From: Leishmania mexicana MHOM/GT/2001/U1103
Taxonomy: Eukaryota > Euglenozoa > Kinetoplastea > Trypanosomatida > Trypanosomatidae
Direction: 5' to 3'
Assembly (NCBI RefSeq): GCF_000234665.1
Contig: NC_018324.1
Coordinates: forward strand, 119,501 to 183,500
DNA length: 64,000 nt
Shown: piece by piece, positions 21,509 through 23,776 of the stretch
Position numbering within the stretch: the stretch's first letter is position 1
Layout of the letters: every line of letters starts with the position of its first letter
Program-made: the position numbers and the translations under genes
Notes under the pieces: model-generated
What the model saw: only the letters and a program-made list of their open reading frames with translations
Databases searched by the model: none
Told to the model about the DNA's origin: nothing

Positions 21509-23776
21509 CTAGGCGGTGTCACCGCGGGACAGCACCGACTTCGACACCGCAGACGATGGAAGGAACAGCATCTCGCGCAGCATATCGTTGCGCGTCGCCG
21601 CGATCACATCTCGACACCAGTCGTTCACTGCGAACGAGATACCGAACGTAAGGCTGCTCACCGTGAAAGAGAAGGGCATCTTGCGGTAGAGGAGGGCCAC
21701 CGTTTTAGGGCTTTTGAGCAGCGATTGCACGGAGCTAGTGCCCAGCTGCGCGTACACGACACGCTCCGCCTGGCGATTACGCTTCATGACGTTCAGTGGG
21801 TACGTTATCACAGAGCCGGCCAGCCCCGACGTCGCGCCAGCGGCCATATACTGCAAAAAGGTATGGCATCCAAACCGCTCCTTCAAATAGTCATACAAGG
21901 CAAATCCGATGCCGCCGAGAACGCCCACGCCCATCATGGAAAGGTAGCAGCCTTTCCACAGTGAACCGATGCCGTGACGTCGGGCCATGGCGCGCAGCAG
22001 CCAGAAATATGACTGAAAGCTGGGAACGGCGTTCACGGCGACACGCGTGCGCAGAAGATCGAGTGGGTACACGATCGTCGTCCCAAGCGACGCGGCGGCA
22101 GCGCCGGCGGCAAAGTTGGTGTACGGTGTGGCCACGTGCGAGTACATTAGCCGCTCCGCCAACAACTGAAACATATCGAAGAAGCAGTACGTTAAGGCAC
22201 CGTACGGTACCACACGCAACATCGTGACGTGCCCCGACGTCCACATGTTCGGACTCTGCTTGACGACTTGGTACAGCAGCTGCGCTCCCTTCTTTGCCGA
22301 GGTTTTCTCGGTCATGCCCACCTGATACAGGATTTTCAGCCGGTCAAAGGGCAAGGAAAAGAACTTGGCCGTGGCGGCAGCCACCCCGCCGCAGAGGAAT
22401 GCCTCCGGCAGCGTCACAATGTTGTGGCGCGACGAGTACACGACCGTTGTCTCGTAGTAGTTGCGCGTGCGTCGCTTTACAAGATCATTCACAGTGAAGC
22501 TCGTCGCGGTGGCGATGGGACCTTTGATCCAGTTCATGGCAAGGCCTTTGTAGAGTCCCTGGCGAATCCCTTCCTCCCGATACACCGTTCGTAATGCGTC
22601 GATGACACTCAAGTAGCGTCGTGGGGTGACTTGCATGCGCCGCCGCACAATATCAAGCGGGTATGTCGCCGACTGCGCGAGCAACCCTGCAAATCCGCCA
22701 GCTACCAGTCGCTGATACGTTGGGATGTCCTTGTCAGACTTCAGGTTGGAAACCTTTACAATGTAGTGCTTAAGTGTCTCAAAGCATGCAAAGCTACAGC
22801 CCGCGTAGGGGACAATGCCCACAAGCGTAGGGAAAAGGCCGCCGTAGAGGGAGAGAACACCTTGCTTAGATGTGGCTTCTTTGAAAGCGGTGCTATAGCT
22901 AGGAAAGCGCCGCTTGCCCGAGCTGCTACGCGCTGCAAATCGGGCACGCATGAGGTCTAGTGGGTAGGTACAAGTAGTCGAAGTGGCCCCTGCCAACGAG
23001 CCGCTAATGAAACGCAGCGTCACCGCCCGCGCCTCGTCGGGCGAGCCGTCTGGATTGCTGCGACTGAACATGAAGCGCAGCTTGCTGTGGTAGAAGTCGA
23101 AGGAAGCATAGGTGATAGCCGCGTATGGAACGACACGGAGCATCGTCGCGCCATTGCCGATCCACAAACCCGTTATGCCAAACTTTCGCACCGTCTCCGC
23201 GCCGAGGTAGAGAGCCTCACGCAGGCTAAAGTAACGTGCCGACTCCACCTGGAAAATGATCTTGACACGGTCACCGGGCGCGATGACAGTCTTGCTCACA
23301 GCGCCAGCGATACCGCCGGCGGCGAAACTCTCAATGAACCGAATTACCTCCTTGGTGAGTGAGTGCGGCGCGTTTGTATTACTTGTGCCTTCGTACCCGT
23401 GCTTCACGACGAGGACACTGTACTCGCCGGAGCGGTCGAAATCCAAAAGCTCCTCACCCAGGGAAGAGAAGGCGTGACGATTCTCGTGGCAGAAGAGCGA
23501 CCACTGAGGCTCCGTGAGGCCGCCGACGCCGTCTGTGTCGTATCGGAGAACAAGAGCACGCAGCTCAGGGACAGAGAGGCTGCAGAAAGGGGTCACCTTC
23601 TCCAGAATGGTGTGCAGTGGAACTACGAGAATTTCCTCCTGCGAGCTAGATGCAGAGGGGTCATCAGCGGTATCCGACATCACGCGACTAGATGAGGCAT
23701 TCGAGGGTGACGCGAGCGAGCTAGCAGTTGCTTCAGCAGCAGGCGCCGAAAGGGACGATGAGGTCATCGACAGCAT
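21509..23776 (-). CDS. Tandem (six-repeat) mitochondrial carrier family protein with degenerate EF-hands
   Basis: A 755-residue protein from the ATG at 23776 (a second ATG three codons in is possible). It contains six mitochondrial-carrier repeats, twice the usual three: signature prolines at residues 167 (P-G-D-R-V-K), 272 (P-L-D-L-M-R), 373 (P-L-D-I-V-R), 476 (P-F-D-R-L-K), 571 (P-L-D-L-L-R) and 660 (P-L-N-V-M-K). The sixth has Asn in place of the salt-bridge Asp. Both halves share T-M-L-R-V-V-P-Y (211-218 and 518-525) and D-R-x-K-I-x-x-Q-V, so the two units look like tandem duplicates. Before the carriers lie two EF-hand-like loops, D80-Q91 and D112-V123, each lacking the position-12 Glu. 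EF-hands fused to a carrier recall the SCaMC/aralar group. Probably an inner-mitochondrial-membrane transporter; substrate unknown. The frame is uninterrupted, so it is one fused gene. Confidence 0.9.
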   Translation of the reverse strand: MLSMTSSSLSAPAAEATASSLASPSNASSSRVMSDTADDPSASSSQEEILVVPLHTILEKVTPFCSLSVPELRALVLRYDTDGVGGLTEPQWSLFCHENRHAFSSLGEELLDFDRSGEYSVLVVKHGYEGTSNTNAPHSLTKEVIRFIESFAAGGIAGAVSKTVIAPGDRVKIIFQVESARYFSLREALYLGAETVRKFGITGLWIGNGATMLRVVPYAAITYASFDFYHSKLRFMFSRSNPDGSPDEARAVTLRFISGSLAGATSTTCTYPLDLMRARFAARSSSGKRRFPSYSTAFKEATSKQGVLSLYGGLFPTLVGIVPYAGCSFACFETLKHYIVKVSNLKSDKDIPTYQRLVAGGFAGLLAQSATYPLDIVRRRMQVTPRRYLSVIDALRTVYREEGIRQGLYKGLAMNWIKGPIATATSFTVNDLVKRRTRNYYETTVVYSSRHNIVTLPEAFLCGGVAAATAKFFSLPFDRLKILYQVGMTEKTSAKKGAQLLYQVVKQSPNMWTSGHVTMLRVVPYGALTYCFFDMFQLLAERLMYSHVATPYTNFAAGAAAASLGTTIVYPLDLLRTRVAVNAVPSFQSYFWLLRAMARRHGIGSLWKGCYLSMMGVGVLGGIGFALYDYLKERFGCHTFLQYMAAGATSGLAGSVITYPLNVMKRNRQAERVVYAQLGTSSVQSLLKSPKTVALLYRKMPFSFTVSSLTFGISFAVNDWCRDVIAATRNDMLREMLFLPSSAVSKSVLSRGDTA

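What the first reader, a model, noticed from the sequence alone, without database searches (positions are those of the whole stretch)
21509..23776. Tandemly duplicated mitochondrial carrier: six carrier repeats in one polypeptide
Carriers of this family normally have three repeats (~300 residues). Here six repeats occur in one uninterrupted frame, with both halves sharing T-M-L-R-V-V-P-Y at a 307-residue offset. A covalent double carrier bears on the debated question of whether these transporters work as monomers or dimers.
Basis: partly seen in the sequence, partly recalled or inferred. Interest (0 to 1): 0.75.

Follow-up and report, generated by a model that had tools for sequence, protein, structure and literature searches.

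The report
Two unlike mitochondrial carriers in one
A Leishmania gene encodes two mitochondrial transporters joined in one chain; related proteins in distant single-celled organisms suggest that the two halves are an old, unequal pair that also occurs joined in the opposite order, so a long argument about whether such transporters work singly or in pairs could be tested on it.

Summary
In detail: ORF 21509-23776 (minus) encodes 755 residues with six PF00153 repeats, each above the Pfam cut-off, and TMLRVVPY at 211 and 518. It is not a recent tandem duplication: 122 of 130 homologues examined have six repeats, including named trypanosomatids, a euglenid and a dinoflagellate. Both halves belong near SLC25A42 (coenzyme A carriers) but are two old types. 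Half A keeps the signature motifs and contact points in 51 of 51 kinetoplastid proteins; half B lacks the third signature acid (51 of 51) and, in kinetoplastids, basic contact point III (50 of 51). In 122 of 123 proteins exactly one half keeps that acid. The order is A-B in kinetoplastids and euglenids, B-A in dinoflagellates and (name recalled) diplonemids. A tree joins B halves of both orders (97/97), and grouping halves by position is rejected (AU p 0.026, 0.007). Best reading: a single-chain unequal pair, A carrying a coenzyme A-type nucleotide, B in Leishmania a non-transporting partner. Against: three-repeat proteins of both types fall inside the clade, and function is untested. Ten open-access searches listed no description.

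The parts
21509..23776 (-). whole coding sequence, 755 aa, six-repeat (double) mitochondrial carrier
23471..23638 (-). N-terminal domain, residues 47-102; possible degenerate EF-hand pair
23075..23341 (-). repeat 1 (half A), residues 146-234
22754..23020 (-). repeat 2 (half A), residues 253-341
22463..22726 (-). repeat 3 (half A), residues 351-438
22403..22474 (-). linker between the halves, 24 residues (435-458) by the repeat profile built here; it overlaps the Pfam ends of repeats 3 and 4 by a few residues. Both ends on the same membrane side by the six-helix topology (inferred)
22160..22411 (-). repeat 4 (half B), residues 456-539
21869..22129 (-). repeat 5 (half B), residues 550-636
21602..21862 (-). 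repeat 6 (half B), residues 639-725
23135..23137 (-). R214, contact point I of half A (aligned with an arginine of the ADP/ATP carriers 1okc and 6gci)
22652..22654 (-). D375, acid of the third signature motif of half A (51 of 51 kinetoplastid A halves)
22523..22525 (-). K418, contact point III of half A (51 of 51)
22214..22216 (-). R521, contact point I of half B, retained
21791..21793 (-). N662, where half B has lost the third signature acid
21659..21661 (-). V706, where half B has lost the basic residue of contact point III
23866..23908 (-). candidate trans-splice acceptor: 17-nt pyrimidine tract and following AG upstream of the ATG (inferred, no transcript data; shorter tracts of 12-13 nt also occur inside the ORF)

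Best explanation
A single-chain, unequal carrier pair. One frame gives a protein with two complete six-helix carrier domains in the same orientation, joined by a short linker. Half A (residues about 146-438) is an intact SLC25A42-type carrier and most likely moves coenzyme A or a related adenine nucleotide across the mitochondrial inner membrane. Half B (about 456-725) is an old sister carrier whose matrix gate lacks one of its three acids; in kinetoplastids it has also lost contact point III, so here it is most likely a non-transporting partner that positions, stabilises or regulates half A. Shown: architecture, asymmetry, conservation, phylogeny, both orders. Inferred: one mRNA, substrate, location, orientation, and the role of B.
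Against: No transport, localisation or interaction data. The model does not establish how the halves contact each other (pTM 0.65 for the whole). Outside kinetoplastids half B keeps a basic contact point III in 72 of 72, so B may well transport there. In a wider tree 24 of 37 three-repeat proteins fall inside the clade of double-carrier halves (support 85, not starred), 22 beside A halves and two (P0165, P0222) beside B halves; unless these are fragments (19 of the 24 come from contigs under 3.5 kb), fusion is not obligatory for either type. In kinetoplastids half B evolves faster (mean pairwise identity 45.5% against 63.3%) and has also lost residues of the first and second gate motifs in a minority, which fits loosening constraint too.
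Confidence: 0.6

Rival explanations
1. Two independent working carriers in one chain: the fusion simply doubles capacity, or pairs two substrates moved independently, as the two carrier domains of the dimeric aspartate/glutamate carrier do.
For: Outside kinetoplastids both halves keep a basic contact point III (72 of 72 in each half). In the only confirmed SLC25 dimers the carrier domains transport independently (PMC12410006, passages).
Against: In 50 of 51 kinetoplastid proteins, Leishmania's among them, half B lacks a basic contact point III, and none of the 51 keeps the third signature acid in B. The asymmetry is present in 122 of 123 proteins, which independent copies would not need.
Confidence: 0.2
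2. Half B in kinetoplastids is a decaying passenger with no role, left over from an ancestral double carrier.
For: Half B evolves faster: 11 invariant columns against 73 in half A over 50 proteins; several gate residues lost.
Against: All 51 proteins of the set have six repeats (though the set was chosen among six-repeat proteins); the predicted fold is retained; first signature proline 49 of 51, contact point I arginine 50 of 51 and last cytoplasmic-network aspartate 51 of 51 are kept.
Confidence: 0.15
3. No functional pairing: two single-gene paralogues A and B that lay side by side were fused by chance, once as A-B and once as B-A, or a tandem copy of the double gene was cut out of register.
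For: 24 of 37 three-repeat proteins in a wider tree fall inside the clade, 22 beside A halves and two beside B halves.
Against: Chance fusion does not explain why the same two types are joined in both orders and retained across such distances; 19 of those 24 entries come from contigs under 3.5 kb and may be fragments of doubles.
Confidence: 0.1
4. Assembly or gene-model artefact joining two neighbouring carrier genes.
For: Tandem carrier genes may occur in this genome (two loci with identical repeat scores on C19).
Against: One uninterrupted frame on genomic DNA with no intron needed; same fusion in 122 of 130 homologues, including transcriptome entries; halves only 30% identical.
Confidence: 0.01

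Closest known systems
SLC25A42 mitochondrial coenzyme A carriers (three repeats)
   Same: Half A shares its neighbourhood, the R / G-I (or G-V) / K contact points, MNW-KGP in helix 6 and PYAG in helix 4.
   Different: Three repeats there, six here; no half B; loss of the third signature acid is rare there (H in 2 of 94 three-repeat proteins, both of type B).
ADP/ATP carrier (SLC25A4 group; 6gci, 1okc)
   Same: Fold of each half.
   Different: Roughly 24-32% identity for half A and 20-25% for half B; three-repeat protein held to be monomeric.
Aspartate/glutamate carriers SLC25A12/A13 (the only confirmed SLC25 dimers; PMC12410006 and PMC7458400, passages)
   Same: Two carrier domains held together; an extra N-terminal domain with EF-hands.
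   Different: There the pair is formed through the N-terminal regulatory domains of two chains; here two unlike domains lie in one chain.
Carrier-type chains in Tetrahymena complex IV (7w5z, 8b6h)
   Same: Carrier folds found within a larger assembly; structural matches of both halves.
   Different: Separate three-repeat-sized chains; only a precedent for a structural role of a carrier fold (that role is recalled, not read).

Membership tests
SLC25 mitochondrial carrier family | PF00153 repeats of about 100 residues in sets of three | tested here: met
   Six repeats as two sets of three
SLC25 mitochondrial carrier family | Protein of three repeats, about 300 residues | tested here: not met
   Six repeats, 755 residues; so the whole chain is a variant architecture, each half by itself fits
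SLC25 mitochondrial carrier family | PX[DE]XX[KR] on all three odd helices: half A | tested here: met
   P, D and K/R in 51 of 51 for all three motifs
SLC25 mitochondrial carrier family | PX[DE]XX[KR] on all three odd helices: half B | tested here: not met
   Third acid lost in 51 of 51 kinetoplastid proteins
SLC25 mitochondrial carrier family | Six-helix carrier fold | tested here: met
SLC25 mitochondrial carrier family | Transport across the mitochondrial inner membrane | not testable with these tools
   Needs localisation and transport assays
SLC25A42 (coenzyme A carrier) | Closest relationship to SLC25A42 sequences | tested here: met
   Names of listed hits of half A; own-genome comparison; trees set the halves beside SLC25A42-type three-repeat proteins
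SLC25A42 (coenzyme A carrier) | Contact points R, G-I/V, K with PYAG and KGP: half A | tested here: met
   R, G-I and K in 51 of 51; equivalence checked against 1okc and 6gci
SLC25A42 (coenzyme A carrier) | Contact points R, G-I/V, K with PYAG and KGP: half B | tested here: not met
   Leishmania half B has V for K and VLGG for PYAG
SLC25A42 (coenzyme A carrier) | Transports coenzyme A | not testable with these tools
   No assay available
Calcium-regulated carriers (ATP-Mg/Pi, aspartate/glutamate) | N-terminal EF-hand domain | tested here: inconclusive

The most novel reading that the evidence does not exclude
Obligate pairing of SLC25 carrier domains: an old A/B pair, joined in either order in different eukaryotic lineages, in which one domain transports and the other is a gate-weakened partner that controls it. 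That would be a working heterodimer in a family held to act as monomers, with the kinetoplastid B half reduced to a pure regulator.
Probability: 0.35. Interest if true: 0.85.

Novelty: new variant of a known kind. Interest (0 to 1): 0.62.

Why it matters
A 2025 review argues that SLC25 carriers act as monomers and that there is no selective advantage in forming dimers (PMC12410006, passages). Here two unlike carrier domains are found in one chain in trypanosomatids, euglenids and dinoflagellates (and, by recalled names, diplonemids), in both orders. Since each half can be mutated separately within one chain of fixed 1:1 stoichiometry, whether carrier domains influence each other becomes directly testable. 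It is also the best candidate coenzyme A carrier of this genome, as none of the 24 other carriers scored comes near it in likeness to SLC25A42.

Tried and rejected
Recent tandem duplication in this genome: rejected; homologues with the same layout reach far beyond Leishmania and the halves are 30% identical. Halves from unrelated carriers: rejected. Halves grouped by position (all N, all C, or kinetoplastid + euglenid + diplonemid N halves): rejected by AU test, p 0.026, 0.007 and 0.007; the test assumes that the group was named before the tree was seen, which holds for the first two only. Assembly artefact: rejected.

Led nowhere: a scan of IMG/VR with P0086 gave two pattern matches and no relative. 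NCBIfam gave no family. tRNA and tandem-repeat scans of the window were empty. Ten paper searches showed no title or abstract start about six-repeat carriers. The phrase hits that could have meant it were opened as passages: three papers speak of carriers with two PF00153 repeats instead of three (PMC7664626, PMC12482593, PMC9512666), and PMC7924939 showed no passage. The library lacks most subscription papers; the T. brucei carrier inventory of 2009 (recalled) could not be read.

Limits of my own handling: the labels 'kin' (51 proteins), 'dip', 'dino' and 'green' in scripts are mine, from likeness and trees. Named by a source: Leishmania, Porcisia, Leptomonas, Strigomonas, Trypanosoma, Eutreptiella, Amphidinium, Cladocopium (six repeats), Kryptoperidinium, Effrenium, Prorocentrum (not exactly six by my count). 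Recalled from name prefixes: Rhynchopus (Rhum), Euglena gracilis (EG), two prokinetoplastids (PhM_4, PhF_6). 'green' (P0085, P0086) is a guess; their taxon is unknown. One search listed 120 of 305 hits, so the spread is under-sampled, and the 123 proteins are not independent. In the main tree only two kinetoplastid B halves were used, to avoid long branches; nine more were added, where the defining column was not removed. In one search the B type was scored with a loose residue list, so that fast-changing kinetoplastid B halves count as B. The eight of 130 proteins without exactly six repeats were left out of counts: seven have four or five, and P0122 counts seven because an EF-hand pair splits a repeat. 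Three split repeats were merged (P0052, P0098, P0106). The repeat profile was trained on the same proteins it then counted. P0029 was left out.

Full report
WHAT IS THERE. The frame 21509-23776 (minus) is open from ATG to stop and encodes 755 residues. PF00153 matches six times, 319 bits in total, and a six-frame search of the whole genome places six repeats in this one frame, each over the curated cut-off (31.6 to 85.6 bits against 22.3). TMLRVVPY is at residues 211 and 518. The halves are 30% identical over 265 residues, with an alignment score of 284 against a maximum of 60 in 200 shuffles. The closest protein is 95% identical and comes from Leishmania infantum; contigs of 3.34 and 1.67 Mb numbered 20 and 8 suggest L. 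mexicana (recalled karyotype, not tested). Of the 30 other carrier places I fetched 28: 24 show three repeats, two show two and two show one. The two not fetched (C19 at 56 kb, C77) have three matches each. So this is the only six-repeat carrier seen in the genome.

HOW WIDESPREAD. Two searches gave 130 homologues (120 listed of 305, ten more). With a repeat profile built here, 122 of 130 have six repeats; the other eight have four, five or seven. As a check, the profile gives exactly three in 97 of the 118 new proteins that brought (96 before split repeats were merged), so it does not simply invent six; it was, however, trained on these same proteins. Named six-repeat sources are Leishmania, Porcisia, Leptomonas, Strigomonas, nine Trypanosoma species, the euglenid Eutreptiella and the dinoflagellates Cladocopium and, by taxid, Amphidinium. 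Kryptoperidinium (P0122) has the same layout with an EF-hand pair inserted. Several entries are transcriptome-derived by name, which supports one mRNA.

TWO UNLIKE HALVES. An alignment of 123 six-repeat proteins split into halves, with 94 three-repeat proteins, gives a consistent asymmetry. In the 51 proteins I class as kinetoplastid, the N half keeps all three PX[DE]XX[KR] motifs and contact points R, G-I and K in 51 of 51. The C half lacks the third acid in 51 of 51 (N 32, S 10, K 5, H 4) and a basic contact point III in 50 of 51 (P0039 has R). It keeps the first signature proline in 49, contact point I arginine in 50 and the last cytoplasmic-network aspartate in 51; other gate residues are lost in a minority (for instance the first acid in 3, the second in 2 of 51). 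Residue equivalence to the ADP/ATP carrier was read from the 1okc and 6gci alignments of half A. [quoted passage not shown] So the Leishmania C half should have a weaker matrix gate and a disabled substrate site (inference). Over 50 proteins of the set half A is 63.3% and half B 45.5% identical on average (A higher in 1202 of 1225 pairs), and 73 against 11 columns are invariant. Outside kinetoplastids half B keeps a basic contact point III in 72 of 72, so the loss there is of the third acid only.

TWO ORDERS. Over all 123 proteins exactly one half keeps the third signature acid in 122; P0118 keeps it in both. In 51 kinetoplastid proteins and five others (P0043, P0048, P0053, P0058, P0062) it is the N half; in 66 it is the C half. 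In a subset of 24 A and 24 B halves, two more positions separate the types completely (window residues 168 and 415) and two almost (165, 414); at 168 the G/A of half A is itself unlike most three-repeat proteins, which have L. Scoring three markers, the order is A-B in 56 and B-A in 67 of 123; 63 of the 72 non-kinetoplastid proteins show all three markers in both halves. A tree of 60 rows with the defining column removed joins all 24 B halves, N-terminal and C-terminal alike, with support 97/97, and separates the double-carrier halves from seven SLC25A42-type three-repeat proteins at 98/95. Holding all N halves together is rejected at p 0.026, all C halves at 0.007, and kinetoplastid, euglenid and diplonemid N halves at 0.007. 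With nine further kinetoplastid C halves and three outgroup carriers the 33 B halves are one side of a branch at 100/97.7 (the defining column was kept there). The A halves are not one supported clade; A is the part that stayed like the three-repeat carriers, and deep branches among A halves are unresolved.

A RESULT AGAINST A NEAT STORY. With more three-repeat proteins in the tree, 24 of 37 fall inside the clade of double-carrier halves (support 85): 22 beside A halves and two, P0165 and P0222, beside B halves. 19 of these 24 come from contigs under 3.5 kb and may be fragments, but P0165 and P0222 start with Met and look complete in length (335 and 330 aa). So I read the whole as one old A/B pair whose order was permuted, or two fusions of the same two partner genes; the data do not decide between these, and separate A and B genes are not excluded.

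FUNCTION. The informative names among the 120 of 1996 hits of half A that were listed are nearly all SLC25A42 or solute carrier family 25 member 42 (one, P0244, is called ADP,ATP carrier), and half A is by far the best SLC25A42 match among this genome's carriers (595; the next of 24 scored 305; half B 290). I commit to half A as the coenzyme A or related nucleotide carrier (about 0.7, inference) and half B in kinetoplastids as a non-transporting partner (about 0.65, inference). That a carrier fold can sit in a larger assembly has a precedent in the carrier chains of Tetrahymena complex IV, which appear among the matches.

WHAT IS KNOWN. The 2025 SLC25 review names the aspartate/glutamate carriers as the only confirmed dimers, with independent carrier domains (PMC12410006, passages; PMC7458400, passage). 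The Diplonema mitochondrial proteome paper lists two SLC25A42-class proteins, and in the passages seen says nothing of six repeats (PMC12699882). The Rhabdomonas paper counts 75 carriers, again without it in the passages seen (PMC8219788). A T. brucei carrier paper describes the family as having three repeats (PMC4422618, passages). Ten searches showed no title or abstract start describing six-repeat carriers; most subscription papers are not in that library, so this is no proof of novelty.

VERDICT. Confirmed observation, larger than stated: a new variant of a known kind, interesting because of the conserved asymmetry and the two orders rather than because of the six repeats alone.

Noticed in passing
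P0122 (Kryptoperidinium foliaceum), residues 300-352: A carrier of the same layout with an EF-hand pair (PF13499, E 4e-10) inserted inside the third repeat of its N-terminal, B-like half: possible calcium control of half B.
   Followed up: partly
P0165 (335 aa) and P0222 (330 aa): Three-repeat proteins with B-type residues that fall inside the B clade; either true single B carriers or pieces of double carriers.
   Followed up: partly
P0056 (1278 aa): An unusually long six-repeat protein; among the non-kinetoplastid doubles the distance between the halves reaches 512 residues in one protein.
   Followed up: no
G000:C19:50746-51612 and 56275-57141: Two loci with identical carrier-repeat scores about 5.5 kb apart; the one fetched (L009) is the next-best SLC25A42 match in the genome and may be an ADP/ATP carrier (not tested).
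   Followed up: no
window 27726-30968: Likely divergent strand switch: of nine neighbouring ORFs scanned, the eight with a Pfam hit lie on the minus strand below and on the plus strand above this stretch; possibly a start region of two polycistronic units (inference).
   Followed up: no
window 35961-38384, 32842-33777, 62307-63257: Neighbouring genes by Pfam: elongation factor G type, a protein kinase (cyclin-dependent-like by eye only), and a ribonuclease HII-family protein (PF01351).
   Followed up: no
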